Shown: piece after piece, positions 196 through 39,670 of the stretch
How the letters are laid out: every line of letters starts with the position of its first letter
Position numbering within the stretch: the stretch's first letter is position 1
NCBI GenBank assembly: GCA_944388575.1
Contig: CALXJF010000012.1
Span: 1 to 39,670 of the forward strand
DNA length: 39,670 bases
Direction: 5' to 3'
Source of the DNA: an uncultured Clostridia bacterium
GTDB taxonomy: Bacteria; Bacillota; Clostridia; TANB77; CAG-465
Translations under genes and position numbers: made by a program
The notes under the pieces: model-generated
Told to the model about the DNA's origin: nothing
The model's input: the letters and a program-made list of their open reading frames with translations, nothing else
The model's database searches: none

Positions 196-2559
196 TTAAA
201 CTATATTCTCAATTTTTTCTGATAATAATTTACACCACTCTTGAGTATTATAATATTTAGTCTCCAGAATGTTCAGTATTTCTTTATAAATTGTATATGC
301 CTCTTTATTCTTTCCAACTATCACATATGCATCAGCTAATAGCTCTTTATATTTCAACAAATTAGCATCAAATGATACAAAGTATTCTTCTCTGATATCA
401 ACAGCCTCATTTAAAGCTAAAATTGCTTTTTCATAATCTTCTAACTTTAGATATATTTGACCAAGCACTCTTGATACACTAGCTATATCATTGTTTTTTA
501 TCATATGATTTTCTGATAAAATTTCATAAGCCTTATTTGCAAAATCTAAAGCAGTATTATATTCTTCTAGCTCATAGTAAGCTTTAGCAAAATCAAGACA
601 AAAAGAGCCATCTAAAATTCTATCCTTTTGTAGCCCTTGATCATTAAATATTCTATATGCATCATCTAAATATTTTTTGGCCACAGTGATATCTTTTTCA
701 GCCAGAAAAATCGAAAACAAAGACTTATATCCATCACATAATAATCTATAATCCTCATTCTCTTCAGCATAATTAATCATTTTAGTATAATACACTTTCG
801 CTTCATTGTAATCATTCTTCTTATGATAAAGATAAGCTATTTGATGATACAAATATCCTAAATTAGGATATTCATTTATTTTTTCTGCTATTTTTAATAT
901 TTCAAAAAATATTTTTTCCGCTATCTCAAAATCGCATACATCACGTAAGAAGAAACTAAATTTTAAAAAGTATTCTAAATTATCTTTATCAATATTGGGG
1001 AACTTTTGATATATCGATTTTATAATATCAACATATTTTTCTTTTTCCTTAAGTGATAAATACCAAGAATATTCTTTAGCTATATTATTAAATAATACTT
1101 TATAATTCTTGTCACTTACATTAAATTCATTTTTTACTACACTTGCTATAACGGGGTGAAGTGATATAACATCTGTTATATAGTTATAACTAATAAAACT
1201 CTTTTTTATTAGACCATTTATAATTTGAGCCGAATGTATATCACAAAGTTTCATAAAGAATTCAAAATCACAGCCAGATATTGGAAAAACATATAACATA
1301 GATAAAATATATTTTTCTTCCTTACTTAAACTCGACATATCAAATACCTTTGAAATGCACTGATAAATAGACTCAAACTCCTTAAAATTATAACTAACCT
1401 CACCTTTTAAACCAGGATTAATACCCAAATTATTCAAGTTATCAAGCATTATTTCAGGTTTTATTCTTAGGTCTTGCATGATACTTGCAATAAGTAAAAT
1501 AGCTAACGTATGTCCATTTACTTTAGATATTATTTCTAATACAATACTCTCATCCTCTTTAGATAAATTAAGATAGTAGTTTTCCTTAAATAATTCTAAT
1601 AATTTATTACTTTCAGATAACTCTTTTATATTTACTATAGATAATTTATATTTTTTTAAATCATTTCTACTAGTAAAAATTATATGATAATTTCCTTCTA
1701 GTAATTTTTCTAAATTTTCATCTTTTTCAGTATCAAAATTATCTACAATAATTAAGGTCTCATCATTAGTAATCTTAAATATTTCTTTTAACTTTCTTTC
1801 AAAGAAAATATCGTCATTCTCTTTATTTCCATTTTCATCTATTTTTCTATAAAAATCTTCTATATAAAAATAATCTTCATTTAATATCATATTCTTAATA
1901 CTACCATCATAGATAGCAAATATTATTGTTTTATATTTATCTTTATTTAAATTAGCATACTGTTTAGCTATCTCACTCTTACCTATTCCTCCCATTCCAT
2001 TTAAAACCACTCTACCATACGTCTGCAAATTATCTTCTATCTGTTTCATTTCAGCATCTCTTGCAATAAAATTTGGATTAACTAAGTATTTATTTCCTTT
2101 TAACATTTTTTTAGATACATTTTTTTCCTCTGTAATTTCATCATTTAAATTTAATAAATAACTAATTCTTTGACTTAATTCTTCAATCCTTTTTTCCAAA
2201 GGAGGTGTTATAGCATCAATCCAATGCATTCTACCTATATAATATTTAGCATCTTGACTTATATCCTCATTTGAAATATGAAAAGGAATTATTGATATAT
2301 TTTCTGAAGCCCTTACTCTTTCAACTGCTAAATTAATTTCATTTAGTACATCTTCTGAATATGAAGCTTCTTTATTTAATATTAACAGAAATATCTTACA
2401 ATTATTTATAGCTTCAACAATACTTTTAGCATAAGCACCTACTGTATTTCTTGGAGCATACCAACAGCGTATATTTTTACTTTCTAAATTATTACAAATT
2501 GCTTCTGTTATTTTGAGTGAAGACTTAGTATGATGGCTAATAAATACATCTACTTTCAT
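196..2559 (-). CDS. TIR / NB-ARC (STAND) / TPR protein, NLR-like
   Basis: A 787-residue three-part protein. Residues 1-135 form a TIR domain: it opens with a DVFISHH strand, and E74 in the VLNEINLAVE helix is the candidate catalytic glutamate of NAD-consuming TIRs. Residues 160-500 form an NB-ARC/STAND NTPase with P-loop GMGGIGKS (188-195), a Walker B-like IIVDNFD and an FTSRND sensor motif. Residues about 540-780 are tetratricopeptide-like helical repeats, the likely sensing part. By family, such proteins oligomerise on a trigger and activate TIR NADase activity; bacterial examples act in anti-phage defence with abortive infection. That role is inferred here. AAAGGAGG precedes the ATG with good spacing, and the gene has its own promoter and terminator. 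A second TIR gene lies 245 bp upstream on the same strand. The domain call is firm; substrate and trigger are unknown. Confidence 0.9.
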   Translation of the reverse strand: MKVDVFISHHTKSSLKITEAICNNLESKNIRCWYAPRNTVGAYAKSIVEAINNCKIFLLILNKEASYSEDVLNEINLAVERVRASENISIIPFHISNEDISQDAKYYIGRMHWIDAITPPLEKRIEELSQRISYLLNLNDEITEEKNVSKKMLKGNKYLVNPNFIARDAEMKQIEDNLQTYGRVVLNGMGGIGKSEIAKQYANLNKDKYKTIIFAIYDGSIKNMILNEDYFYIEDFYRKIDENGNKENDDIFFERKLKEIFKITNDETLIIVDNFDTEKDENLEKLLEGNYHIIFTSRNDLKKYKLSIVNIKELSESNKLLELFKENYYLNLSKEDESIVLEIISKVNGHTLAILLIASIMQDLRIKPEIMLDNLNNLGINPGLKGEVSYNFKEFESIYQCISKVFDMSSLSKEEKYILSMLYVFPISGCDFEFFMKLCDIHSAQIINGLIKKSFISYNYITDVISLHPVIASVVKNEFNVSDKNYKVLFNNIAKEYSWYLSLKEKEKYVDIIKSIYQKFPNIDKDNLEYFLKFSFFLRDVCDFEIAEKIFFEILKIAEKINEYPNLGYLYHQIAYLYHKKNDYNEAKVYYTKMINYAEENEDYRLLCDGYKSLFSIFLAEKDITVAKKYLDDAYRIFNDQGLQKDRILDGSFCLDFAKAYYELEEYNTALDFANKAYEILSENHMIKNNDIASVSRVLGQIYLKLEDYEKAILALNEAVDIREEYFVSFDANLLKYKELLADAYVIVGKNKEAYTIYKEILNILETKYYNTQEWCKLLSEKIENIV

Positions 2560-2804: not shown

Positions 2805-3749
2805 CTATTTTTCAAGGAATTTTGATAATATTTCTAATTCTTTGAAATTTATTACTTCATATTGTCTTAATAATAAAGGTAAATCAGCAATATTCATTAA
2901 ATCATCTATAACAGTTATAATATTTCCTGTTTTTCTATTTGAGCGTTTTTCATTTGCAAATGTGGACCATTCATACTTAACCCAACCAGATAATACTACT
3001 TCTTTAGATGTTGCTACAACAACAATATTTTTAGCTTTTTCTAGTGCATTGTCTATTTCAAAAGAATAATCTGTATTAGACAATGCAGGAAGAGAAATCT
3101 CTGATAAAAAACATGAAAATCCAGTACTAATCAAATTATCATATATTTTTTTAGATTTTAGAAAATCATTGCTTTTATGCGAAATGAAAACATCTATTGT
3201 TTCATCATTATTTAATTCTTCAATTTCTTGAATCAGTTCTGATGGAATCAGCTTATTCTCTTTATGCGCTTGAGAAATAATATCTGCAATATTGTTATAA
3301 TTATTACCTCCAATCCAGAAAAGGTATTGATTTTTTTCCTTGTCATATAAATGAATTCCTGTTCCTTTTACACCAAATTCAAAATGCTCTGGTTTTAAAA
3401 TTGCTCTTTGCTCATGCTGTTCCATTTTTAAAAGAAGTTCTTGCATAGAATTACTATAACAAATATACGAACTAATTCTTTCTGTAGGCCAAAACATTTC
3501 TGTACATACTCCTCTGTATCGATATGGTTCTTCTACGTTTTTTCCATAACAATTAAAAACTTCCTTAATTGTTTGTAAATCAAAAACACAATGACGAAAT
3601 GCAAGATCACATATACAATCTTCATAAGACATATAAGTTCCTAAATATTCACTACCTTTATACAGCTGTAATCCAATTCCTGGTGCATTGTTTTCAAAAT
3701 GAAATTCATTAAAAAATTTTATTTTATCAATCGTATTTTTCATATTCAT
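2805..3749 (-). CDS. TIR-domain protein with duplicated N-terminal module
   Basis: A 314-residue protein. The TIR domain is at the C-terminus (about 184-300): TIDVFISHKSND opens it, and E260 in WVKYEW sits where the catalytic glutamate of TIR NADases is expected. The first 180 residues match no family I recognise but contain two copies of one module: residues 17-65 begin HFE, then GIGLQLY and EYLG; residues 122-178 begin HFE, then GTGIHLY and QYLFWIG, each followed by a helix-rich stretch. A duplicated N-terminal sensor or ligand-binding part joined to a TIR effector is a reasonable reading. No membrane segment or signal peptide is seen. The start is the first ATG; the ribosome binding site (GTGAGAGTG) is weak. 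It lies just upstream of the TIR/NB-ARC gene, suggesting a defence island. TIR call firm, the rest inference. Confidence 0.82.
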   Translation of the reverse strand: MNMKNTIDKIKFFNEFHFENNAPGIGLQLYKGSEYLGTYMSYEDCICDLAFRHCVFDLQTIKEVFNCYGKNVEEPYRYRGVCTEMFWPTERISSYICYSNSMQELLLKMEQHEQRAILKPEHFEFGVKGTGIHLYDKEKNQYLFWIGGNNYNNIADIISQAHKENKLIPSELIQEIEELNNDETIDVFISHKSNDFLKSKKIYDNLISTGFSCFLSEISLPALSNTDYSFEIDNALEKAKNIVVVATSKEVVLSGWVKYEWSTFANEKRSNRKTGNIITVIDDLMNIADLPLLLRQYEVINFKELEILSKFLEK

Positions 3750-3984: not shown

Positions 3985-4029
3985 AAAATAAATTTTTGTA
4001 TTATTAAGGTGGTGAAATTAAATAATACA

Positions 4030-4175
4030 TATAATAGCGCTAAGGTTAAAAAAGACTAACGAGGATGATAGTTGTCGAATTTTTAAGCGGATGCTATCAC
4101 GGTATTTTTAGTATCGTTATACATATTACAAAAGTAAAATCTAAAATTACTACAAAAAATATGTAGTCTAAAAAA
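4030..4175 (+). ncRNA. glmS ribozyme (GlcN6P-responsive self-cleaving leader)
   Basis: The leader carries the hallmark segments of the glmS ribozyme in order: the cleavage context ATAGCGC (predicted cut between A4036 and G4037), the core segment AACGAGGATGATAG at about 4058, TTGTCGAA, GCGGATGCTATCACGG at 4087, and a closing hairpin CTACAAAAAATATGTAG near 4151-4170. By family knowledge this RNA uses glucosamine-6-phosphate as a cofactor to cut itself, after which the downstream mRNA is degraded, giving feedback on GlmS. It ends about 50 bp before the glmS start, which has a GGAGG site. Confidence 0.9.
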
Positions 4176-4226
4176 ATTTCGTTATAAATTATATAACTTT
4201 GAAAATAATATATATGGAGGTTTATT

Positions 4227-6045
4227 ATGTGTGGAATAATTGGATATTGCTCAAAAAAGCAAAATGCAAAAGATATAGCAATTGCAGGGCTAAAAAATCT
4301 TGAATATAGAGGGTATGACTCTGCTGGTATAGCTACATGCGAAAATAACACAATAAAATTATATAAATCAAAAGGAAAAATCTCTAACTTAGAAGAGAAA
4401 TTAAACAAAGTAGAAATTCAAAGTTCAACAGCTATTGCTCATACTAGGTGGGCTACTCATGGTGAACCAAGCGAAACAAACGCTCATCCTCATAAAGTTG
4501 GAAGTGTAACATTAGTCCATAACGGTATTATCGAGAATTATATAGAGTTAAAAAATTTTTTAAAAAATAAAGAAGTAACTTTTAAATCAAGCACAGATAC
4601 TGAAGTAGCATGTGCATATATAAACTATATATATCAAAAATCAAATGATAAAAACAAATTACATATATTAAAAACAGCTTGTAATGAATTTAGAGGCTCT
4701 TATGCTTTCTCTATTATATTTGATGATGAACCTAATACAATTTATGCTACAAGAAAAGATAGTCCACTAATTGTAGGACTTAATGATGACGGAAACTTTT
4801 CAGCCTCTGATGTTTCAGCAATTCTGGAATTTACAAATAAATACATTTTACTTGAATATGGTGAATATGCTAAAATAACTTCAAATGATGTTCAAATATT
4901 TAATGAAAATTTAGAGCCAATTGAAAAAGAAATAAAGATAGCAGATTGGAACGCTACAGAATATAAAAAAAATGGATATGAGCATTATATGCTAAAAGAA
5001 ATAAATGAACAACCAGAAGTTGTGGAAAAATTATTTAAAAGTTACTTTGCAAACGAAGATTATTTAGGTGTTAATATTTCAAATTACTCTGAAATACATA
5101 TAGTAGCTTGTGGAAGTGCTATGCATGCTGGAATGGTAGGGAAATACTTATTTGAAAACTTTGCTTCAATACCTGTAACTGTAGAAATTGCATCAGAATA
5201 CAGATATAAAAAGCAACTAATTACTCCTACTACTTTAGTAATAATAATATCACAATCAGGAGAAACTGCAGATAGTCTTGCTGCTCTTAGAATTGCAAAA
5301 GAACATGGTGCCAAAGTTCTTGCTATAGTAAATGCAACTCGGCTCTAGTATAGCACGTGAAGCAGATAAAACAATTTATACTTATGCTGGTCCTGAGATT
5401 GCAGTTGCTACTACTAAAGGGTATACAAGTCAAGTTGCTATTTTAGCACTACTTGTACTTGATACGATGAGACAAAAAAATATATTAAATGATAGTTTTA
5501 AAGCAGAAATCGAATCTCAAATAGATAATATTTCTTCTCTAATGAAAGATACAATAAAAAGATATGACGAATACTTAAATATCGCTAAAAAAATTCAAAA
5601 TGATGAACATTTATTTTTCTTAGGACGTGGAATTGACTACTCTTTATGTTTAGAAGGTTCTTTAAAACTAAAAGAAATTTCATATATGCACTCTGAAGCA
5701 TATGCAGCTGGTGAATTAAAGCACGGAACTATTTCATTAATTACTAACAATACACCAATAATTGCAATTGCTACTGATGATGATTTATATGAAAAAACTG
5801 TAAGCAATATAAAAGAAACTAAAGCAAGAGGTGCCTTCGTTATATTTATAACTAATAAAGATTTAAATATTGAGGATCATAACGATTTTGCTGATATTGT
5901 TTTGACTCTTCCTAAAGTTAATGAATTACTGCAAGTACTTGTAACTATACTACCTTTACAACTTATTGCTTATCAAACAGCTAAACTTCGTGGTTGCGAT
6001 ATAGATAAGCCTAAAAATCTAGCAAAATCGGTTACTGTTGAATAA
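4227..6045 (+). pseudogene. glmS: glutamine-fructose-6-phosphate aminotransferase, frameshifted
   Basis: GlmS makes glucosamine-6-phosphate from fructose-6-phosphate and glutamine, the first step to UDP-GlcNAc. The N-terminal amidotransferase begins MCGIIGYC with the catalytic Cys2, then RWATHG, and the first SIS domain has SQSGET. The frame runs 4227-5348 and stops after ILAIVNATRL; a second frame (5332-6045) continues GSSIAREADKT through AGPEIAVATTKGY, the second SIS domain and a proper C-terminus. Dropping one C at about 5340 restores a full-length protein of normal size (IVNATGSSIARE against the usual IVNVVGSSIARE). The break is inside the first SIS domain, so neither half should work alone. 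Ribozyme, promoter, ribosome binding site and terminator are all intact, which argues for a very recent mutation or a sequence error rather than old decay. Confidence 0.88.
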
Positions 6046-12062: not shown

Positions 12063-13862
12063 TTATTTTACCTTTACATTGTCATTTCCAAAAGCAATTT
12101 GCAATCTATCTAATGTTTCTTTAGATAGATTTAACCAATTATCTTTATTTAATAATTTTAATTTATTTGTTCCATCATAAAAAATGTATACAGGAATATT
12201 ACCTTTAAAGTCATTTTCTAAGTTATTAATAAAAGTAATAACCCTATCTTCTAAATCTAATTTATCCTTGGGAAGTCTTATATATATTTTTTTATTAACT
12301 GTAATCATTTCAACATTTGATATTAATATCTTAGCCTTCTCATTTTCTTTTAAATTAATTTTACCTGTTACTTTTAATATATTATCTTTTTTTAGTATAT
12401 CTGAAAATCTCAAATAAACATTGGGAAAAATAACAGCTTCTATACTACCATACATATCTTCAATTTCTGCAAACATCATCTGTTTATTAGCTTTAGTAGT
12501 AAGTATTTTGGTTTTTGTCAGTATTCCACAATAAACTTGAGTTGTTTCATCATAGGAAACTTTTTCTTCTCTAAATTCATTATCTATAATTTCTTCATTT
12601 TGGACAACTAAATCTTTACTAGTTACTGTTGAATTCTTTAAAATATATTGCGAATATTCATCAAGTGGATGTCCAGAAACATATAAACCTAACATTTCTT
12701 TTTCCATATCTAAAAGTTCTCTTTTAGTAGGTTGTTTACCACATTTTTTTATTACAACACTACTTGATTTTATGTCTTCTTGGATATCAAATAAATTTAT
12801 TTGATTTATATAATTATTCTTTTTTTCTTGAGTAACGTTATCAACAATTGCCTCGTAACTTTCAAGTAAATCATAGCGATTTATTCCTTTTTCAATTTCA
12901 TCAAAAGCACCTGCCATTATCAAGCTTTCTATACATTTTTTATTTACTTGTTCTCCTGAGACTCTTTGGCAAAAATCAACAAAACTTGCATACCTTCCCT
13001 GTCTTTTTCTATCTTCTACTATTTCTTTAATAGCATTTTCTCCCACATTTTTTATAGATACAAGTGCAAATCTTATCTTTTTATTAATTACTGCAAATTT
13101 AGCATAACTCTCATTAATATCTGGTTTTAGTACCTCTATATTCATAGCTTTACATTCAGCAATATACTCTGGTATTTTATTTAAATTTCCAATCATACTA
13201 TTCATAAGAGCTGCCATGAATTCATGAGGATAATGTGCTTTTAAATAAGCCGTTTGATATGCAATTACCGCATAGGCAGCTGCATGAGATTTATTAAAAG
13301 CATATTTTGCAAATTCTGCCATCTCATCAAATATTTTATTTGCACTTACTTCATCAATATTATTTTTAATAGCACCTTTTACAAATACTTCTCTTTCTTT
13401 TGCCATTACATCCAATTTTTTCTTTCCCATAGCACGTCTAACCAAATCTGCTCTTCCAAGGCTATATCCTGCCAAATCTCTAAATATTTGCATTACTTGT
13501 TCTTGATAAACCATACATCCATATGTAACATTTAAAATTGGTTTTAAAGCCTCATGAGTATAAATTATATCATCTTTGTTATTTTTATTTCTTATATATC
13601 TTGGAATTTGATCCATTGGACCAGGTCTATATAACGATATCATGACAATAATATCTTCTAAACAATCTGGTTGCATTTTCATCATCATTTGCCTAAAACC
13701 TTTACTTTCCATTTGAAATATACCTGTTGTTTTTCCTTCACACAGCATCTTAAATGTTTTGGTGTCATTCATATCTTTTCCAAAATCTATTCTAATTCCA
13801 TGTATTTTTTCTACTAATTTTAATGCATCAGATATAACAGTCAACGTTCTAAGTCCTAAAAA
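12063..13862 (-). CDS. dnaE: DNA polymerase III alpha subunit, 3' exon
   Basis: The second coding part of dnaE after the group II intron. The true sequence begins FLGLRTLTVISDALKLV (13862); residues before this in the open frame (MPTVFVTYHY) are intron-encoded and not part of DnaE. It includes the rest of the palm and the fingers (GIFQMESKGF, DIIVMISLYRPGPM, YGCMVYQEQVM, RRAMGKKK, FNKSHAAAYAVIAYQTAYLK), the helix-hairpin-helix part and an OB-fold near the C-terminus (VYCGILTKTKILTTKANK, MMFAEIEDMYG). The 599 residues here plus 549 from the 5' exon give 1148, normal for DnaE. Without splicing this piece has no good start and lacks the PHP domain and the catalytic aspartates. Confidence 0.93.
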   Translation of the reverse strand, partial: FLGLRTLTVISDALKLVEKIHGIRIDFGKDMNDTKTFKMLCEGKTTGIFQMESKGFRQMMMKMQPDCLEDIIVMISLYRPGPMDQIPRYIRNKNNKDDIIYTHEALKPILNVTYGCMVYQEQVMQIFRDLAGYSLGRADLVRRAMGKKKLDVMAKEREVFVKGAIKNNIDEVSANKIFDEMAEFAKYAFNKSHAAAYAVIAYQTAYLKAHYPHEFMAALMNSMIGNLNKIPEYIAECKAMNIEVLKPDINESYAKFAVINKKIRFALVSIKNVGENAIKEIVEDRKRQGRYASFVDFCQRVSGEQVNKKCIESLIMAGAFDEIEKGINRYDLLESYEAIVDNVTQEKKNNYINQINLFDIQEDIKSSSVVIKKCGKQPTKRELLDMEKEMLGLYVSGHPLDEYSQYILKNSTVTSKDLVVQNEEIIDNEFREEKVSYDETTQVYCGILTKTKILTTKANKQMMFAEIEDMYGSIEAVIFPNVYLRFSDILKKDNILKVTGKINLKENEKAKILISNVEMITVNKKIYIRLPKDKLDLEDRVITFINNLENDFKGNIPVYIFYDGTNKLKLLNKDNWLNLSKETLDRLQIAFGNDNVKVK

Positions 13863-13959
13863 ATAGTGATAGGTAACGAACACCGTCGGCATTATCTGTT
13901 ACGGGTCGTTTTCCCCCACTTCACACCATACGTGCGACTTTCAACGCATACGGCGTTCC
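13863..13959 (-). ncRNA. Group II intron domains V and VI
   Basis: On the minus strand, the 34-nt domain V is visible at about 13922-13958: GCCGTATGCG, GAAA-type loop, GTCGCACGTATGG, close to the consensus catalytic hairpin. Domain VI fills the rest to 13863, with an unpaired A at position -8 as the likely lariat branch point. Confidence 0.85.
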
Positions 13960-14039
13960 ACCAAGTATAGTAGTCTTCGGTAAACTACTTTCGGGTTATG
14001 TCAGATTTTGTTCAAGTTTTAACCAGTTTAGTGTTTTGG

Positions 14040-15899
14040 TTATTCTAGTTTCTTACGATATTTCGCAAGTTTTTTCATTGTTTTTTCTGACAAATCTTCA
14101 GGTTTTGAATCATTATGAATCAGCTGATGACAGTATTTGTGTACTGTGATAAGGTTTTTGACCTTATTCCTTTGATTGCTTGGTAATTTCGGTTCGACAT
14201 GGTGGAAATGCGCATCATTGGGTTCAACATATCCTCCACAGATTTTGCATTCCCCTTTGTCTCTATTGTATGTGTATGGTCGGTTCATGAAGTATTCGAA
14301 GTCATAGAGTGGATGTTTGCTCATTCTTATGTACAATGCATGAGCATTGGAATTCACTTCGTCCGTTCGGACTTGTAATCCTTTTCTACGCATTCTCTTG
14401 TTATAAATCTCTCTTCCTTCTGGAGTGTATGGATTTTCAGCTTGATTTTTGCATATTGGATTTTCCCATTTTGCAAAATTTATATCTGTAATTCCAATCC
14501 ACATTCCTTTATATTCGACTGCTGGGATATTGGCTTTGTGCCCTTTGTGCAGCCCAATCAGATTTGAGACTTGGTTTGCTCTGACCCATTTACCACCATA
14601 ACGTTTCAGTGATTTGTATGCTGTATATTTCAGTAGCCATGCATACTTTCTCACAATAACGCTAATCTGGTCACACATATTATAATAATTGATAAGTCCT
14701 ACAATAATCGAATTAACTCGCACTATGTTTTGAATCAGTCTGTCTCTGTCCAGTGTGGAAGTTTTCCTTATATAGAACAGTTCACGACTTAGCTCTTTCA
14801 TCTTGCGGTCAAATCTTTCTTTGTCTGGAGAAACTCTATTAACCAGCATTCCGTTTTTGTTATACATCTTGATTTCTACACCAAGAAACTTAATCGGCCT
14901 GCTGCACACATTCGTTATCAGTGCTTTTTCATCTGATAATTCCAGCTTCAAGGCTTCTTTCAGATACCTTTTGGCTTTATATTTCAGACGTTCAGCGGCT
15001 TTTTTACTATCAGTCAAGATAACCCAGTCATCCGCATACCTGATGAAGTAACAGGTTTTAAGATTACTATGATTTCTCATAGCAGTCAATTCACCGTCTC
15101 TTCTTGAATGTGTTTTTTTGAGTCTCTTTCTCTCAAAATCACCTGTCATATAATTATCGAATCGATTTAAGTAAATGTTTGCTAATAGTGGAGAAATGAT
15201 ACCACCTTGCGGTGTTCCTAATTCACTTTTTACGCATTCATCCATCACTCCAGCTCTGAGCATTTGCTTAATGATACTTAGTACTCTTCTGTCTCGAATT
15301 CCAATATTCCATAGACTTTTTATCATTACATTGTGGTCAATGTTATCAAAAAATCCTTTGATATCTCCTTCGACTGCCCAGTAGCATTTGGATGTCCAGT
15401 TAATGCGCTTGATTCTTGCTATTGCCATGTCCGCCGACCTCATGGGCCTAAAGCCGTATGAGTGTTCAAAGAACTGTGCTTCTGCGATTGGCTCCAGAAT
15501 ATTTCTTACGCATTCCTGGATAATTCTATCGATAATCGTTGGTATTCCAAGTGGTCTTTTTTCGGACTTACCTGGTTTCGGTATCCATACTCTTCGCACC
15601 ATTTCAGGTTTGTAACAGTACAATCTATTTCTGACTTCCTGTAGAACCTCATCATAGTTTTTATTTAAATAATCATCCATTGTTTTCTGGTCAATTCCAG
15701 CAGTGTTGCTGCCTTTGTTTCCTTTAATTTTATGGATTGCAGAAACTATATTTGGTTCTGATGCAATAATTTCTAGGATACCTGTGAAATTACTTTGCTT
15801 TCTTTCATCATAATTTTTCTTTGCCTTCAAATAAATATTTTGTAAGAGTTCGTTGAGTTCCTTTTCTGTTATAGGAACTTTATTAAGTTTTGTCCCCAT
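14040..15899 (-). CDS. ltrA: Group II intron reverse transcriptase/maturase (RT, maturase, HNH)
   Basis: A protein of about 619 residues of the LtrA type. The reverse transcriptase part begins around residue 60 (GIDQKTMDDYL, WIPKPGKSEKRPLGIPTIIDRIIQ, YGFRP) and has LGTPQGGIISPLLANIYL and the catalytic FIRYADDWVIL (YADD near residue 290). The maturase/thumb region follows, then an HNH endonuclease at the C-terminus (CKICGGYVEP, DAHFHHVEPK, NLITVHKYCHQLIH). All functional parts look complete, so the intron should be both self-mobile and able to help its own splicing. I take ATG 15899, 9 nt after GGGGG; an in-frame TTG at 15905 is closer to that site. Base composition is richer in G+C than the surrounding dnaE. 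Confidence 0.95.
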   Translation of the reverse strand: MGTKLNKVPITEKELNELLQNIYLKAKKNYDERKQSNFTGILEIIASEPNIVSAIHKIKGNKGSNTAGIDQKTMDDYLNKNYDEVLQEVRNRLYCYKPEMVRRVWIPKPGKSEKRPLGIPTIIDRIIQECVRNILEPIAEAQFFEHSYGFRPMRSADMAIARIKRINWTSKCYWAVEGDIKGFFDNIDHNVMIKSLWNIGIRDRRVLSIIKQMLRAGVMDECVKSELGTPQGGIISPLLANIYLNRFDNYMTGDFERKRLKKTHSRRDGELTAMRNHSNLKTCYFIRYADDWVILTDSKKAAERLKYKAKRYLKEALKLELSDEKALITNVCSRPIKFLGVEIKMYNKNGMLVNRVSPDKERFDRKMKELSRELFYIRKTSTLDRDRLIQNIVRVNSIIVGLINYYNMCDQISVIVRKYAWLLKYTAYKSLKRYGGKWVRANQVSNLIGLHKGHKANIPAVEYKGMWIGITDINFAKWENPICKNQAENPYTPEGREIYNKRMRRKGLQVRTDEVNSNAHALYIRMSKHPLYDFEYFMNRPYTYNRDKGECKICGGYVEPNDAHFHHVEPKLPSNQRNKVKNLITVHKYCHQLIHNDSKPEDLSEKTMKKLAKYRKKLE

Positions 15900-16679
15900 A
15901 GGCAATCACCCCCTATGGTTAGTTCGTTTCGCTCAACGGCTACCTTAATAATTGAACATTCTTACATAACCCTATTCTTGGCTATGCCCCTTCGCTTCAC
16001 AGACATTACTCTGCTTCAACACTACTACGGGCTGCTGCCACTCGAATTCACAAGTCATTTCCTACTTGCTAGAAACATCGACACTTAAACATCTTATCAT
16101 TTTCTTTCGAGCTTCAATTGTTCCATTGATTTTATCCTTTTATTATAGCAACTTAGCTGCCGCCTTTAACCCGTAAGCTATTCTTTCTCCCGTTAGCTGA
16201 ATGGAATCAGAACGCATATCCTTTACTGGATACACACCGTATTCGCAATGGACAATACGAATACCGCAACTTAAATCCCTACAGGGATGACCCAACTTTC
16301 GTCGGGGTCGTTAAATTACGAGCCTTTCATACGGCGGTTCCTGGTGAGTCAGCATATTGCATTTTTCAGGACCCCCGACCTACTTCGTCTTCTTATAACC
16401 TACTCTATATTTTCTAACGGGCGGGCTCTAGCCACTTTTGTACCAGCTATACTTATATATTTCGTTTACTTAGAATTCTTTTCAGCCGACTTTACCGAGC
16501 TTCATACCTTTCAGTTTTAAGACTGATTGGCATGTCGGAGTCTCAGGGATTAGAGTATCAGCATTTACTCTATAGTTGGAATTTCACCAACCAAATCAAA
16601 TCAATAGTTAAGCAGATTCTATTCTGCTCCGCTAACTTGTTTCCATTTCTAGAGTGTTTCATTAGCGAACAATTCGCAC

Positions 16680-18326
16680 ATCCATTTTAAGTAATCCAAG
16701 CTCTTCTAAAGTTGTCATTGTATATTGCGTAGAAATAATATTTTGACTTTCATATAATGGTACATAATTTACAACTTCTTCCTTAGTTATAACAACTCCT
16801 GCTGCATGAGTTGAAGCGTGTCTAACCATTCCTTCTGCCTTTTTAGCTAAATCTATTATCTGTTTTACTTGTTCATCTGTTTCATATAAATCCTTTAAAC
16901 CTTTACTTATATCTAAAGCCTTATTTATCGTCATCTTTAATTCGTGCGGTATTAATTTAGCTATTACATCAGCCTTTTGATATGAGACATCCAAAACACG
17001 AGCAATATCTCTAACTGCTGCACGAGCCGCCATAGTTCCAAATGTTATAATTTGAGCTACATGGTTCTGGCCATATTTTCTTGCTACATAGTCAATCACT
17101 TCTTGACGTCTTTCATAACAAAAATCTATATCAAAATCAGGCATACTTATTCTTTCTGGATTTAGAAAACGTTCAAATATTAAATTAAACTTTAAAGGAT
17201 CTATATCAGTTATTCCAATTAAATATGCAGCTATTGAGCCTGCACCACTTCCTCTACCTGGTCCAACAGATATACCAACTGACCTTGCATAATTAATATA
17301 ATCTTGAACTATCAGAAAATAATCTATATATCCCATTTTATCTATTACACTAATTTCATACTCAAGTCTATCAGTAACCTCTTTACTATAATTTTTTCCG
17401 TATCTACTTTCTATTCCACCATAACAAAGGTTCCTAAAATATTCTAAATGAGAAATATTTCCTGGAATTTTAAATTCCGGTAATATTGTCTTTCCAAATT
17501 CGAACTCAACGTTACACATATCTGCAATTTTTACTGTATTTTCTATTGCCTCAGGTATATTTTTAAAAGCTTCTTCCTCCTCTTTAGCTGATTTGACATA
17601 AAATTCATTTGTCTTAAAAGTCATCCTATCTGGGTCATTTATTGTTTTTCTAGTTCCTATACAAAGTAGTACTTCATGAAAATCATAATCCTCTTGATTT
17701 AAATAATGACAATCATTAGTAGCTACTAAACCAATTCCAAACTCCTTTGAAAACTGTATTAATTGTTGATTTACAAGAATTTGCTCCCTTAATTTATTAT
17801 CTTGAACTTCTAAAAAATATCTTTCTTTTCCAAATATATCGATAAATTCTTTTATGGTCTCTTTAGCTCCATTAATATTTGTATTTATAATTTGAGTTGC
17901 TACCTTTCCAGCTAAGCAAGCACTCAAACATATTAAACCCTCATTATATTCTCTTAAAATATCCATATCTATACGAGGCTTATAATAGAAACCTTCTGTA
18001 TAACCAGCAGAACATAACTTTACTAAATTATGATATCCAATATTATTCATTGCAAGTAATATTAAATGATTTGGTTCTGTATCTACTTTTCCCTGCTTAT
18101 CAAATCTACTACGCGGTGCAACATAAACTTCACACCCTATAATAGGTTTTATTCCTTCAGCTTTACATTTTTTATAAAATTCAATAGCACCAAACATATT
18201 ACCATGATCTGTTATAGCAACAGACTTCATTCCTAACTCTTTTACCTTTTTTACTAAATCATTTATTCGTATAGCACCATCTAATAAACTATATTCTGTA
18301 TGCACATGTAAATGTACAAAATCCAT
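16680..18326 (-). CDS. dnaE: DNA polymerase III alpha subunit, 5' exon
   Basis: The first 549 codons of dnaE. It holds the PHP domain (residues 1-210; HLHVHTEYSLLDG, AITDHGNM, IGCEVYVAP) and the first half of the polymerase core, including GPGRGSGAGSIAAYLIG and MPDFDIDFCYERR, whose two Asp residues are catalytic. It ends LGLLKMD; by alignment to E. coli DnaE this last Asp is the third catalytic residue. The open frame continues into the intron for five codons (VRIVR) before a stop, so unspliced mRNA would give a truncated polymerase. DnaE in Firmicutes works beside PolC in lagging-strand synthesis and is normally essential. I start at ATG 18326, preceded by GGTGAGG; nine further in-frame codons upstream lack a site. 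Confidence 0.95.
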
Positions 18327-18344
18327 ATTCCTCACCTTATGGTT

Positions 18345-18373
18345 ATTATACAAAAATTTTAAGCTTCTGTCTA
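18345..18373 (-). promoter_or_regulatory. dnaE promoter
   Basis: TAGACA, 17 nt, TATAAT on the minus strand, about 19 bp before the dnaE start codon, giving a very short leader. Confidence 0.6.
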
Positions 18374-35850: not shown

Positions 35851-36294
35851 ATGAAAGAAAAAATAAAATCAAGTAGTATTGTTAATATTTTTCCTAAAGA
35901 ATTAGTTAATAATTTAAAAGATACACCTTTTGAACTAGCACTAAATACTTCAATTGATATTGAAACAAGAGTTGAATTTTTATTGCCTTTTTTAGGTGTA
36001 CCATCTAATTTAAAAGGATACAATTATATAAAAAAAGCTCTAATTATTGTATGTAAAGATGAAAGTAAACTAAAAAAAGTAACTACTTTTTTATATCCAG
36101 AAATAGCTAAAATATATAATACCACCCCAAGTAGAGTAGAAAGATCTATTAGACATGCTTTAGAAATATGTTTTAATAGAATGGATCCTATTTTAGCTAA
36201 ATGGTTTTTTGGATATAGCATTGATCCTATTAAAGGTAAATGCACAAACACTGAATTTATTGCTAGAATTTGTAGACTTTTAACAGAGGTATAA
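35851..36294 (+). CDS. Stand-alone Spo0A C-terminal DNA-binding domain protein
   Basis: A 147-residue protein matching the Spo0A effector domain over about residues 48-145: FLGVPSNLKGYNYIKKAL, KVTTFLYPEIAKIYN, the recognition region NTTPSRVERSIRHALE, then FGYSIDPIKGKCTNTEFIARIC. These line up with Spo0A's [35 protein letters not shown], and KPTNSEFIA. The phosphorylated receiver domain is absent; the first 45 residues are too short for one. AAAGGAG precedes the ATG, so it is not a fragment of a longer reading frame here. It could bind Spo0A boxes without phosphorylation, acting as an antagonist or a constitutive regulator; this is inference. It neighbours the ytfJ pair (divergent) and the ankyrin genes (convergent). 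Confidence 0.88.
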   Translation: MKEKIKSSSIVNIFPKELVNNLKDTPFELALNTSIDIETRVEFLLPFLGVPSNLKGYNYIKKALIIVCKDESKLKKVTTFLYPEIAKIYNTTPSRVERSIRHALEICFNRMDPILAKWFFGYSIDPIKGKCTNTEFIARICRLLTEV

Positions 36295-36353
36295 GTAGAA
36301 TAATATAAAAATAGATTATACAAATATAATTTACTTATAAAAAATTAGAAATT

Positions 36354-36392
36354 AAAGACTATACCAATATATTAATTGATATAGTCTTTTTA
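36354..36392. terminator. Bidirectional terminator between Spo0A-C and ankyrin genes
   Basis: AAAGACTATA and TATAGTCTTT, with CAAT/ATTG pairing inside, form a long hairpin followed by T-runs, between convergent genes. Confidence 0.85.
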
Positions 36393-36434
36393 TTAATCAA
36401 TCATCAGATGTTACTTGCCTTCAATACTATAAGT

Positions 36435-38138
36435 TTACAACTTAAATATATCCATTTTTTGATTTATTTGCATATTATAAAGTGCCGTTTTCAAACAATT
36501 TACAACTTCAGTATGTCCTTTTTGGGATGCCCACTTTATTGCAAAATTATCTTCTGCAGAAGGATTTACTCTCTCATCTGCAAGCAATAATCTTACAATC
36601 TCAACATGACCATTTTTGGAGGCATACCTTATTGAAAAATTATTTCCTGAAGAGGGATCTACTCTCTCATCTTTTAGTAATAATTTTACAACTTCAGTAT
36701 GTCCTTTTTGGGATGCCCACTTTATTGCAAAATTATCTTCTGCAGAGGGATCTACCCTCTTATCTTCAAGTAACAGTTTTACAACTTCAGTATGTCCATT
36801 TTGGGATGCCCACTTTATTGCGGAATTATCTTCTGCAGAGGGATCTACCCTCTTATCTTCAAGTAACAGTTTTACAACTTCAGTATGTCCATTTTGGGAT
36901 GCCCACTTTATTGCATGATTATCATATGCAGAGGGATCTACTCGCCCATCTTCAAGTAACAGTTTTACAACTTTAGTATGTCCATTTGCTGAGGCACTGC
37001 TTATTGCATTACTATTTCTTGCAGAGGGATCTACTCGTCCATCTTCAAGTAACAGTTTTACAACTTCAGTATGTCCATTTTCTGAGGCATTCCTTATTGC
37101 ATAATTATTTTTTGCAGAGGGATCTACTCTCTCATCTTTTAGTAACAGTTTTACAACTTCAATATGTCCGTTTGCTGATGCATGACTTATTGCATAATTA
37201 TCTTCTACAGAGGGATCTACTCGCCCATCTTTAAGTAATAGTTTTACAACTTTAGTATGACCATTTTCTGAGGCACATGCTATTGCAAAATTATTATCTG
37301 CAGAGGGATCTACCCTCTTATCTTCAAGTAATAGTTTTACAACTTCAGTATATCCATTTTCTGAGGCAAACTTTATAGCAAAATTATCAAATGCAGAGGG
37401 ATCTATTTTCTCATCTGCAAGTAATAATCTTACAACTTCAGCATGTCCATTTTCTGAGGTATACCTTATTGCATAATTATTTTCTGCCGAGGGATCTACC
37501 CTCTCATCTTCAAGTAATAGTTTTACAACTTCAGTGTGTCCGTTTTTCGAGGCATACCTTATTGCAGAATTATCTTCTGCAGAAGGATCTACTCTCTCAT
37601 CTTCAAGTAATAATCTTACAACTTCAGCATGTCCTTTTTCTGAGGCATACCTTATTGCATAATCATCATATGCAGAAGGATCTACTCTCTCATCTTTTAG
37701 TAACAATTTTACAACTTCAGTATGTCCATTTTGGGATGCATATCTTATTGCAAAATTATTGCTTACAGAAGGATCTACTCGTCCATCTTCAAGTAACAGT
37801 TTTACAACTTCAGCATGGCCATTTTTTGAAGCAAATACTATTGCATAATTATTTTCTGCCGAGGGATCTACCCGTACATCTTCAAGTAACAGTTTTACAA
37901 TTTCAACATGTCCATTTTCTGATGCATACTTTATTGCAAAATTATTTCTTGCCGAGGGATCTACTCGTCCATCTTCAAGTAACAATTCTACAAATTCTAA
38001 AAGTCCTCGTTCACATGCCCATCCAAAAACATAATTATTATCTATTAAATTGGCTTCCCGATTTTCCGAGAGTGACATTTTTACAATAGTTAATAAATAC
38101 TCTTTCAAATCATTTTCGTTTTTAAAAATACTTTGCAT
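36435..38138 (-). CDS. Ankyrin-repeat protein, 17 units of 31 residues
   Basis: A 567-residue protein made of an N-terminal cap of about 40 residues and about 17 tandem ankyrin-like units. The unit is 31 residues (93 bp; for example, successive GAGGGATCT motifs at 36745 and 36838), two shorter than the canonical 33, with pattern VDPSAxxNxAIxxASxNGHxEVVKLLLED. The variable positions change from unit to unit, as in binding surfaces. The first unit is capped by NNYVFGWACERGLLEFVELL, and the last loses the LLL motif. No signal peptide, membrane helix or catalytic domain is present, so it is probably a cytoplasmic binding protein. AGGAGG is 8 nt before the ATG. A shorter paralogue with the same N-terminus and promoter follows upstream at 38543-39472. 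Partner unknown. Confidence 0.88.
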   Translation of the reverse strand: MQSIFKNENDLKEYLLTIVKMSLSENREANLIDNNYVFGWACERGLLEFVELLLEDGRVDPSARNNFAIKYASENGHVEIVKLLLEDVRVDPSAENNYAIVFASKNGHAEVVKLLLEDGRVDPSVSNNFAIRYASQNGHTEVVKLLLKDERVDPSAYDDYAIRYASEKGHAEVVRLLLEDERVDPSAEDNSAIRYASKNGHTEVVKLLLEDERVDPSAENNYAIRYTSENGHAEVVRLLLADEKIDPSAFDNFAIKFASENGYTEVVKLLLEDKRVDPSADNNFAIACASENGHTKVVKLLLKDGRVDPSVEDNYAISHASANGHIEVVKLLLKDERVDPSAKNNYAIRNASENGHTEVVKLLLEDGRVDPSARNSNAISSASANGHTKVVKLLLEDGRVDPSAYDNHAIKWASQNGHTEVVKLLLEDKRVDPSAEDNSAIKWASQNGHTEVVKLLLEDKRVDPSAEDNFAIKWASQKGHTEVVKLLLKDERVDPSSGNNFSIRYASKNGHVEIVRLLLADERVNPSAEDNFAIKWASQKGHTEVVNCLKTALYNMQINQKMDIFKL

Positions 38139-38229
38139 TTTTTAATCCTCCTAAAAATTTTTTTAGTATATATGCCTATATATCTGATTGTATGATTATA
38201 TAATAATTACATAAATTTGTCAATCCCAG
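38091..38229. repeat. Duplicated ankyrin leader and gene start, copy 1
   Basis: About 139 bp covering the first codons, ribosome binding site, leader and promoter of the first ankyrin gene, nearly identical (four differences noticed) to 39425-39563 at a spacing of 1334 bp. This marks a tandem duplication that carried the control region. Confidence 0.9.
38195..38223 (-). promoter_or_regulatory. Ankyrin gene 1 promoter and leader
   Basis: TTGACA, 17 nt, TATAAT, both perfect. The 50-nt leader has two small palindromes, the second (38151-38166; CTAAAAA with TTTTTAG) ending at the AGGAGG site. The rest of the gap to 38475 shows no gene. Confidence 0.8.
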
Positions 38230-38475
38230 GTCATTTATATACAGGGTAATTCCATCGAATATTACAAAAATATTTCAAAGAATTACAATAATATGCTAAT
38301 ACTTCAATTAAAATCTCCTCATTTAGTAGACATTTTCTCATATTAACTATTATTGTTTTTCTTTTTAAATTATGATTTTCTATATATTTCTTTATAATTA
38401 GAATGCAATATATTTAGACATATGTTGGAGTTTATATTTGTCTCTTTACTATTGTCTTCATCATAAAAATATTTT

Positions 38476-38519
38476 AAAAAATAAGATTTGTGGTTAAATA
38501 TCCACAAACCTTATTTTTT
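38476..38519. terminator. Terminator of ankyrin gene 2
   Basis: An 18-bp near-perfect stem (AAAAAATAAGATTTGTGG against CCACAAACCTTATTTTTT, one wobble/mismatch) around an 8-nt loop, with T-runs on both strands. Confidence 0.88.
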
Positions 38520-38542
38520 TATAGTACTTTTTTATAAATCGT

Positions 38543-39472
38543 TTATTGAATGTTCCTTAACTCTAATGCTAGGAGTTTTACAATTTCAATATGTCCGTTT
38601 TTCGAGGCATACCTTATTGCAGAATTATCTTCTGCAAAGGGATCTACTCTCTTATCTGCAAGTAACAATTTTACAACTTCAACATGTCCGTTTGCTGATG
38701 CATGCCTTATTGAGAAATTAATTCCTGCCGAGGGATCTACCCTCTTATCTTCAAGTAACAGTTTTACAACTTCATCATGACCATTTTCTGATGCCCACTT
38801 TATAGCATGATTATCATATGCAGAGGGATCTACTCGCCCATCTTCAAGTAACAGTTTTACAACTTTAGTATGTCCTTTTGCTGAGGCACTGCTTATTGCA
38901 TTACTATTTCTTACAGAGGGATCTACCCTCTTATCTTCAAGTAACAGTTTTACAACTTCATCATGTCCTTTTCTTGAGGCAAATACTATTGCAAAATTAT
39001 CATCTGCTGATGGATCTACTCTTCCATCTGCAAGTAACAATTTTACAACTTCAATATGTCCGTTTGCTGATGCATGCCTTATTGCATAATTATCATATGC
39101 AGAAGGATCTACCCTCTTATCTGCAAGTAACAATTTTGCAACTTCAACATGTCCGTTTGCTGATGCATGCCTTATTGCAAAATTATCATCTGCTGATGGA
39201 TCTACTCTTCCATCTGCAAGTAACAGTTTTACAACTTCAACATATCCATTTTGGGATGCACATCTTATTGCAAAATTATTTTCTGCCGAGGGATCTATCC
39301 CCTCATTTACAAGTAATATTCTTACAAATTCTAAAAGTCCTCGTTCACATGCCCATTTAAAAACATAATTATTATCTACTAAATAGCCTTCATTATTTTC
39401 TGAGAGTGCCATTTTTAGAATATTAAATAAATACTCTTTCAAATCATTTTCGTTTTTAAAAATACTTTGCAT
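38543..39472 (-). CDS. Ankyrin-repeat protein, 9 units of 31 residues (paralogue)
   Basis: A 309-residue paralogue of the neighbouring gene: a shared N-terminus (MQSIFKNENDLKEYL), the same cap (NNYVFKWACERGLLEFV) and about nine 31-residue ankyrin-like units, ending in a degenerate last unit (KLLALELRNIQ). Units 5 and 6 (NSNAISSASAKGHTKVV, DNHAIKW) are nearly identical to units 11 and 12 of the longer protein, pointing to exchange between the genes. Positions facing a partner differ elsewhere. No signal peptide or enzyme domain. AGGAGG is 8 nt before the ATG and the promoter is full consensus. Probably a cytoplasmic binding protein with its own partner; function unknown. Confidence 0.88.
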   Translation of the reverse strand: MQSIFKNENDLKEYLFNILKMALSENNEGYLVDNNYVFKWACERGLLEFVRILLVNEGIDPSAENNFAIRCASQNGYVEVVKLLLADGRVDPSADDNFAIRHASANGHVEVAKLLLADKRVDPSAYDNYAIRHASANGHIEVVKLLLADGRVDPSADDNFAIVFASRKGHDEVVKLLLEDKRVDPSVRNSNAISSASAKGHTKVVKLLLEDGRVDPSAYDNHAIKWASENGHDEVVKLLLEDKRVDPSAGINFSIRHASANGHVEVVKLLLADKRVDPFAEDNSAIRYASKNGHIEIVKLLALELRNIQ

Positions 39473-39563
39473 TTTTTAATCCTCCTAAAAATTTTTTTAG
39501 TATATATTCCTATATATCTGATTGTACGATTATATAATAATTACATAATTTTGTCAATACCAT
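39425..39563. repeat. Duplicated ankyrin leader and gene start, copy 2
   Basis: Second copy of the 139-bp segment described at 38091-38229, covering the promoter, leader and start of ankyrin gene 2. Identity falls away just upstream of the -35 hexamer, so the duplicated block ends at the promoter. Confidence 0.9.
39529..39557 (-). promoter_or_regulatory. Ankyrin gene 2 promoter
   Basis: TTGACA, 17 nt, TATAAT; same spacing as in copy 1, with the same palindromic leader downstream. Confidence 0.8.
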
Positions 39564-39645
39564 GTCAGTTATTTTAAGTTTCCGCAAAAAATTATATTTA
39601 TATTTCTATATTCATTTTTTACTATTACAGTAAACTTCAAAAACA

Positions 39646-39670
39646 GTAAGTTTTTCATATCCAAACTTAC
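39646..39670 (-). terminator. Probable terminator of a gene beyond the right edge
   Basis: GTAAGTTT and AAACTTAC pair around a 9-nt loop; on the minus strand CTGTTTTTG follows. The window ends at the stem, so the arms may be longer. Confidence 0.5.

What the first reader, a model, noticed from the sequence alone, without database searches (positions are those of the whole stretch)
36435..39472. Tandem ankyrin genes made of 31-residue units
The units are 31 residues rather than 33, highly uniform at DNA level (93-bp period) with variable surface positions, and no enzyme domain is attached. The VDPSAxxNxAIxxAS-type unit is more reminiscent of repeats in amoebae and their viruses than of most bacterial ankyrins (from memory, not a search). 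Such pairs could be host- or phage-facing binding proteins or adaptors, with diversity produced by recombination among units.
Basis: partly seen in the sequence, partly recalled or inferred. Interest (0 to 1): 0.58.

Follow-up and report, generated by a model that had tools for sequence, protein, structure and literature searches.

The report
Diversifying ankyrin gene pair, virus-like repeats
A gut bacterium carries two neighbouring genes for pure repeat proteins built from 31-residue units that match units of large bacterial viruses and giant viruses, and the residues on the presumed binding face look selected to change, as if these proteins must keep pace with shifting targets.

Summary
Genes A (567 aa, 16 units) and B (309 aa, 8 units) are a ~58-residue cap plus units of exactly 31 residues, with no other domain. 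Each has its own perfect sigma-A promoter. Together they form a complete ~3.4-kb insertion between spo0A-C and zntA; two sister species show the empty site. Six of 28 genomes of the genus carry such genes (25 ORFs, 164 exact units), scattered between housekeeping genes. The predicted unit is an ankyrin helix pair without beta-hairpin: the inner helix is longer and TPLH is absent. The same unit (consensus 28 of 31 identical) occurs in 15 IMG/VR contigs, some clearly large tailed phages, and in one Chlamydiae MAG; by fold search giant viruses are the nearest viral relatives. Nine variable positions, chosen on A+B, show pN>pS in three of five other genomes; the framework is conserved. Copying between A and B and tandem unit duplication are visible. 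Best reading: cytosolic binding proteins diversified by selection and recombination, probably in conflict with phages or mobile elements. Targets are unknown, strain variation could not be tested, and a eukaryote-facing role is not excluded. New variant of a known kind.

The parts
36435..38138 (-). Ankyrin gene A: 58-residue cap, 16 units of 31 residues, short tail (567 aa)
   Evidence: ORF; unit split; Pfam Ank_2 476.9 bits
38543..39472 (-). Ankyrin gene B: 58-residue cap, 8 units of 31 residues (309 aa)
   Evidence: ORF; unit split; Pfam Ank_2 144.2 bits; AlphaFold pLDDT 91.3
38195..38223 (-). Promoter of A, TTGACA-17-TATAAT, 12 of 12
   Evidence: consensus match only
39529..39557 (-). Promoter of B, TTGACA-17-TATAAT, 12 of 12
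   Evidence: consensus match only
38147..38152 (-). AGGAGG ribosome-binding site of A
   Evidence: sequence
39481..39486 (-). AGGAGG ribosome-binding site of B
   Evidence: sequence
38476..38519 (-). Terminator-like hairpin after B (18 pairs)
   Evidence: fold -20.4 kcal/mol, z -7.7
36354..36389 (-). Terminator-like hairpin after A (15 pairs)
36838..37034 (-). A part (units 11-12 region) of the 197-bp tract shared with B at 95.9%
38730..38926 (-). B part (units 5-6 region) of the 197-bp tract shared with A at 95.9%
36684..36914 (-). Recent tandem duplication in A: 138 bp repeated 93 bp further on at 97.8%
36295..39670 (.). Inserted stretch between the Spo0A-C gene and zntA (zntA follows on contig C15, 77-bp overlap); absent in G018 and G027

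Best explanation
A and B are stand-alone, probably cytosolic binding proteins of a lineage-specific family inserted as small gene cassettes. Each 31-residue unit supplies one lengthened inner helix; residues 6, 9, 13 and 16 form one stripe on it, with 12, 20, 28 and 30 nearby, and stacked units make a groove. The framework is held constant by purifying selection and by exchange between units. The stripe residues are under selection for change, and whole units are duplicated, lost or copied between genes, so new binding surfaces arise quickly. Most likely they bind and sequester, or mark, a fast-changing foreign protein inside the cell, most probably of a phage or another mobile element. Shown: anatomy, promoter-like sites, insertion, distribution, unit kinship with phages and giant viruses, pN>pS at the variable positions, recombination tracts. 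Inferred: cytosolic location, binding function, the helix stripe as interface. Guess: phage or mobile-element target (about 0.35). The confidence below is for the binding-and-diversification part with this target as the favoured one.
For: Exact 31-residue units, no other domain. Empty sites and scattered positions. 6 of 28 genomes of the genus. pN/pS at nine positions 0.43/0.19 in G000, 0.50/0.38 G013, 0.45/0.28 G022, 0.31/0.11 G018, framework pN far below pS in all. A-B tract 95.9% over 197 bp against mean 79.0%, sd 4.0. Same unit in 15 of 20 viral contigs examined, with terminase in large ones and tail sheath beside one array. No hydrophobic N-terminal segment of signal-peptide strength in most (23 ORFs); no WXG100 hit in the 6 carriers.
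Against: pN is not above pS in G015 (0.34/0.48, 9 units) and G027 (0.56/0.63, 5 units). The positions were chosen on A+B, so the G000 value is circular. Carriers cluster in two clades, which fits plain inheritance. Units compared are paralogous and recombining, for which pN/pS is rough. No phage or defence gene adjoins the Ank genes. The nearest viral structures are from eukaryotic giant viruses. Caps of G015 and G022 genes are mildly hydrophobic (up to 1.39).
Confidence: 0.5

Rival explanations
1. Eukaryote-facing effectors: the proteins leave the cell (by unknown export or lysis) and bind proteins of the animal host or of gut protists, like ankyrin effectors of Wolbachia and Legionella or the secreted ankyrins of sponge-symbiont phages.
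For: The same unit is used by giant viruses of eukaryotes, some with F-box, and by a Chlamydiae MAG whose Ank protein has an F-box-like start (18.9 bits, cut-off 20.5). Three carriers carry the MAG label 'Lapin', presumably rabbit gut.
Against: No signal-peptide-like start in most ORFs, no WXG100 protein in the 6 carriers, no secretion gene next to the Ank genes; other secretion systems were not searched.
Confidence: 0.22
2. Endogenous adaptors or chaperones: the repeats bind proteins of the cell itself, and paralogues specialise.
For: Vegetative-type promoters; several paralogues per genome (25 ORFs in 6 genomes).
Against: Absent from 22 of 28 genomes of the genus, so not needed for core functions; variation is concentrated on the face even within one gene.
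Confidence: 0.15
3. Largely selfish or neutral repeat genes: units expand by slippage and unequal exchange, and the variable positions are simply unconstrained.
For: Tandem duplication and high unit identity; G015 and G027 show no excess of amino-acid change.
Against: pN at the variable positions exceeds pS both there and in the framework in four genomes including the one used for choosing; frames are intact and promoters and ribosome sites kept.
Confidence: 0.13

Closest known systems
Ankyrin arrays of IMG/VR contigs incl. large tailed phages (3300025117_000031, 154 kb; 3300023049_000005, 271 kb)
   Same: 31-residue period, DPS/DPT motif, no TPLH, consensus 28 of 31 identical, entropy profile correlation 0.93, often several genes per contig
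   Different: Phage genomes, different caps and tails; hosts and function unknown
Ankyrin proteins of Marseillevirus LCMAC202 and Pithovirus LCPAC (BFVD)
   Same: Best viral fold matches, 41-56% identity over most of B
   Different: Giant viruses of eukaryotes; some carry F-box or Nudix domains
Tandem ankyrin genes of Bodo saltans virus (PMC5871332, passages read)
   Same: Many directional tandem ankyrin genes with recent duplication, read by the authors as an arms race
   Different: Giant virus, 148 copies, some fused to fragments of viral genes; unit length not checked here
ANK repeats of fungal NLR receptors (PMC4986451, section 17 and passages read)
   Same: Internal uniformity, repeat exchange, positive selection at concave positions
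   Different: Joined to NACHT/NB-ARC and effector domains; strain polymorphism shown there, not here
Ankyphage and Wolbachia phage WO ankyrins (review PMC7064744, passages read; Jahn et al. 2019 only as cited there)
   Same: Phage link of ankyrins; eukaryote-directed binding proposed
   Different: INPHARED finds only WO phages, at 26-30% identity; no prophage here
30-residue TPLH-less ankyrins of the same bacterial order (GADVTADDNYAI type)
   Same: Pure repeat proteins, no TPLH, related Clostridia
   Different: 30-residue unit without DPS; other family of the order

Membership tests
Ankyrin repeat superfamily | Profile score above Pfam gathering cut-off | tested here: met
   Ank_2 476.9 and 144.2 bits against 27.3
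Ankyrin repeat superfamily | Stacked helix-turn-helix solenoid | tested here: met
   AlphaFold model, pLDDT 91.3; Foldseek to DARPins, TM 0.79 to 6mok
Ankyrin repeat superfamily | 33-residue unit with TPLH motif (recalled) | tested here: not met
   31 residues, no TPLH
Ankyrin repeat superfamily | Beta-hairpin between units (recalled) | tested here: inconclusive
   No strand assigned in the model; no solved structure
31-residue DPS class shared with phages | 31-residue period, [VI]DP[ST], no TPLH | tested here: met
Ankyphage-type secreted ankyrins | Encoded in a phage or prophage | tested here: not met
   Complete insertion between spo0A-C and zntA holds only A and B
Ankyphage-type secreted ankyrins | Secretion signal | tested here: inconclusive
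   No strongly hydrophobic start by a simple hydropathy scan; no dedicated predictor
Bacterial ankyrin effectors of eukaryotic cells | Secretion system to deliver them | tested here: inconclusive
   WXG100 0 of 6 carriers; other systems not searched
PADLOC candidate PDC-M72 | Match to subunit A plus its partner gene | tested here: inconclusive
   A and B match PDC-M72A only as ankyrins; partner not sought
NLR-type hypervariable receptors | Nucleotide-binding domain joined to the repeats | tested here: not met
   No such domain in A, B or 9 other Ank proteins of the genus
NLR-type hypervariable receptors | Repeat-number polymorphism between strains | not testable with these tools
   One genome per species held

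The most novel reading that the evidence does not exclude
A bacterial repertoire of free-standing, hairpin-less ankyrin binders, traded with large phages, whose inner-helix stripe is diversified by selection and unit exchange: an immune-like, recombination-built recognition family without receptor or effector domains, used by the cell to capture phage proteins, and by phages to capture defence proteins.
Probability: 0.25. Interest if true: 0.8.

Novelty: new variant of a known kind. Interest (0 to 1): 0.5.

Why it matters
Repeat families with a fixed framework and a varied face are hallmarks of recognition systems (DARPins in the laboratory, fungal NLRs in nature). A natural bacterial family of this form, sharing its unit with large tailed phages and giant viruses, would link three kinds of genomes through one binding module. 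It offers a compact natural scaffold without beta-hairpins, and it can be tested directly by structure, pull-down and strain comparison.

Tried and rejected
The giant-virus capsid profile found nothing in 12 viral records, but its controls were silent too, so this excludes nothing. INPHARED phages and PLSDB plasmids hold only relatives of about 26-32% identity. PHROG and PADLOC matches are generic ankyrin similarity; odd Pfam rows (Big_2, RepB_primase and others) I take for repeat artefacts. I suspected that the array ran on beyond the contig end and rejected it: the neighbouring contig overlaps by 77 bases and then holds zntA. I considered a role for the adjacent Spo0A-C gene: its close orthologues (57-61%) occur only in G000, G018 and G027, all Ank carriers, but these three are one clade, and in the other two the gene is not next to Ank genes. 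Strain variation was not testable: one genome per species, no metagenome scans.

Rows dropped before counts: the MutL tree used 26 of 28 genomes (G026 no match, G001 only broken ORFs). Hydropathy used 23 of 25 Ank ORFs (22c is cut by the contig end, 22g lacks a clear start) and the promoter table 24 of 25 (22c left out). Unit scans needed at least 4 or 3 units per ORF. The selection test on the own genome used 22 of 24 units, because the last unit of each gene is not followed by another.

Full report
What is there. The window is the whole contig C12 (39,670 bases) of a 1.47-Mb, 53-contig draft genome. Its sporulation genes (Spo0A-C, YtfJ) and low G+C suggest a spore-forming member of the Clostridia; relatives are labelled uncultured Clostridia. 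Two minus-strand genes lie at its right end: A, 36435-38138, 567 aa, and B, 38543-39472, 309 aa. After a related cap of 58 residues they consist of 16 and 8 units, and all 22 spacings are exactly 31 residues. Pfam recognises ankyrin repeats far above cut-off and nothing else credible. Mean identity between units is 79% in DNA and 69% in protein. G+C is 34.5%, above eight other genes of the window (22-32%), and GC3 is slightly higher too (17% against 9-15%).

Expression signals. Each gene has a perfect TTGACA-17-TATAAT site 56 bases before the start and an AGGAGG ribosome-binding site. These two are the only 12-of-12 matches in the stretch, although the total of promoter-like matches (20) is no more than in shuffled sequence (24.1). 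The roughly 95 bases upstream of both genes are nearly identical and then diverge. Terminator-like hairpins follow both genes. Of 24 Ank genes of the genus examined, 8 have a 12-of-12 and 7 an 11-of-12 match within 200 bases; no shuffled control was made for that table.

It is an insertion. In the two closest relatives (G018, G027; 78-79% MutL identity; one clade with the window genome, support 100/99) the Spo0A-C gene is followed after about 50 bases by a gene for a zntA-like ATPase (named from sequence, recalled). In the window genome that gene lies at the end of contig C15, and the last 77 bases of C12 equal the end of C15 in reverse complement. The pair is therefore complete and occupies about 3.4 kb between these two genes. 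A third gene of the same genome sits beside mutL: 1 of 27 genomes with mutL has an Ank gene there, and mutS or its neighbour was visible in 23 of the 26 others. A fourth lies elsewhere. I recognised no transposase or phage gene next to the Ank genes in the stretches listed (read from sequence, not searched).

Distribution. 6 of 28 genomes of the genus match at E<=1e-10, with 25 Ank ORFs and 164 exact 31-residue units by motif spacing. G013 carries nine Ank genes in one 15-kb block interrupted by other genes. On a MutL tree of 26 genomes the carriers form two groups (2 changes, 0 of 500 shuffles as low): either two gains, or old presence with losses. In the order, 12 of 385 genomes match the four-unit profile at E<=1e-25, six of them of this genus; in the other six the one locus examined per genome has 30-residue units of another type. 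In a phylum sample of 398 genomes only the window genome matches. Three carriers agree in contig number and length with MAGs labelled 'Lapin' (French for rabbit), hence presumably rabbit gut.

The same unit in viruses. Scans of IMG/VR found 31-residue arrays of the same type: 15 of the 20 viral contigs examined carry them, up to four ORFs in one contig. Mean unit score against the profile trained on the genus reaches 57.9 bits in viral ORFs, within the range of the genus itself (42.6-69.8), against 38.8 at best in the Chlamydiae MAG, about 35 for 30-residue and about 21 for 33-residue units. The consensus units of genus and viral contigs agree at 28 of 31 positions, and their entropy profiles correlate at 0.93. 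Several of these contigs are tailed phages: a terminase profile matches 4 of 12 records tested, three of them with 31-residue arrays and 152-271 kb long, and a tail-sheath gene lies near an array in L133. In the library of predicted viral structures the 50 best matches of the model of B are all from giant viruses of eukaryotes, first Marseillevirus LCMAC202 and Pithovirus LCPAC202 (E 3e-23 and 1.5e-22, 41% and 56% identity), some with F-box. In the PDB the best are DARPins and animal ankyrins (E 1.5e-9, 20-36% identity among the 50 listed). The direction of transfer is unknown.

Structure. AlphaFold on an 11-row alignment gives mean pLDDT 91.3, lower in the first 40 residues. Every unit is a long inner helix (positions 5 to 16 or 17) and an outer helix (20 to 28) joined by a short loop around DPS; no strand is assigned. 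Compared with 33-residue units (consensus recalled), two residues of the hairpin region are missing and TPLH is replaced.

Diversification. Variable positions 6, 7, 9, 12, 13, 16, 20, 28 and 30 were defined on A and B. There pN is 0.43 and pS 0.19, while the remaining positions have 0.05 and 0.30 (22 of 24 units). In genomes not used to define them the values are 0.50/0.38 (G013, 71 units), 0.45/0.28 (G022, 42) and 0.31/0.11 (G018, 8), with bootstrap intervals of the difference above zero. Against this: G015 0.34/0.48 (9 units) and G027 0.56/0.63 (5 units). Positions 6, 9, 13 and 16 have helical spacing and should lie on one face of the inner helix; that this faces the groove is inferred, since coordinates were not inspected. 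A 197-bp tract covering two units is 95.9% identical between A and B; of 105 two-unit comparisons the mean is 79.0%, sd 4.0, and the next best is 87.6%. A 138-bp stretch of A is repeated one unit further on at 97.8%. Because an exact repeat of 91 bases exceeds the 77-base overlap between contigs, the repeat number in A is not certain.

Reading. A constant frame, a varied binding face, exchange of units, stand-alone expression signals, patchy presence and kinship with units of large phages and giant viruses fit binding proteins engaged in a conflict. Fungal NLR repeats show the same mode of evolution, with positive selection on the concave face of ANK repeats (PMC4986451, section 17 and passages), and the tandem ankyrin genes of Bodo saltans virus are read by its authors as products of an arms race (PMC5871332, passages). 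The absence of a strongly hydrophobic N-terminus in most and of WXG100 proteins in the carriers favours action inside the cell, hence phage or mobile-element proteins as likeliest targets. This last step is a guess at about 0.35. Giant-virus relatives, and a Chlamydiae relative with an F-box-like segment just below cut-off, keep a eukaryotic target possible.

Novelty. Searches of the paper library for ankyrin with phage and gut, gut metagenomes, jumbo phage, Firmicutes and gene transfer, ankyphage, 31-residue, huge phages, Wolbachia with diversifying selection, rabbit caecum, and pithovirus with F-box listed no paper whose title or shown abstract describes this family; the library lacks most subscription papers. 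Besides the two papers above I read passages of PMC7064744, PMC12660748 and PMC10664404 and the abstract of PMC13170367. Ankyrin proteins are well known, so this is a new variant of a known kind: a hairpin-less 31-residue class with a gut-bacterial expansion under apparent diversifying selection.

Noticed in passing
window 13863-16679 (minus strand): A group II intron (Rfam RF02004 and RF00029) with a reverse transcriptase-HNH ORF at 14040-15905 splits dnaE between 16662-18353 and 12063-13892. The reading breaks at KMD and resumes at FLGL, and the intron begins GTGCG, so an essential replicase gene seems to depend on splicing.
   Followed up: partly
window 196-2559 and 2805-3749 (minus strand): A TIR-NB-ARC-TPR protein and a separate TIR protein lie side by side (Pfam); the second matches ThsB-like TIR models weakly. 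Possible defence genes.
   Followed up: partly
window 4025-6045 (plus strand): A glmS ribozyme (Rfam) precedes glmS, which is read in two overlapping ORFs, 4227-5348 and 5332-6045: a frameshift in the gene or the draft.
   Followed up: partly
window 35851-36294 (plus strand): A Spo0A DNA-binding domain without receiver (147 aa). Orthologues at 57-61% exist only in G018 and G027 of 28 genomes, the sister species; full-length Spo0A is elsewhere in the genome.
   Followed up: partly
L275-L280, L062, L057: Other gut Clostridia carry pure ankyrin proteins with a 30-residue TPLH-less unit (about ADVTADDNYAIRYASENGHTEVVKLLIEAG), a parallel family also matched by viral contigs.
   Followed up: partly
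L038:7718-12834 and L039:957-9266: Nine Ank genes of G013 in one block around genes that look like IF-3 and EF-P (named from sequence, recalled); two cap types, each shared by successive genes.
   Followed up: partly
L131 and L136 and their contigs: Ank-31 phage contigs of 56-154 kb carry the array genes in several dispersed places; two of the fetched stretches also hold a gene resembling adenylosuccinate synthetase (recalled, not searched).
   Followed up: no
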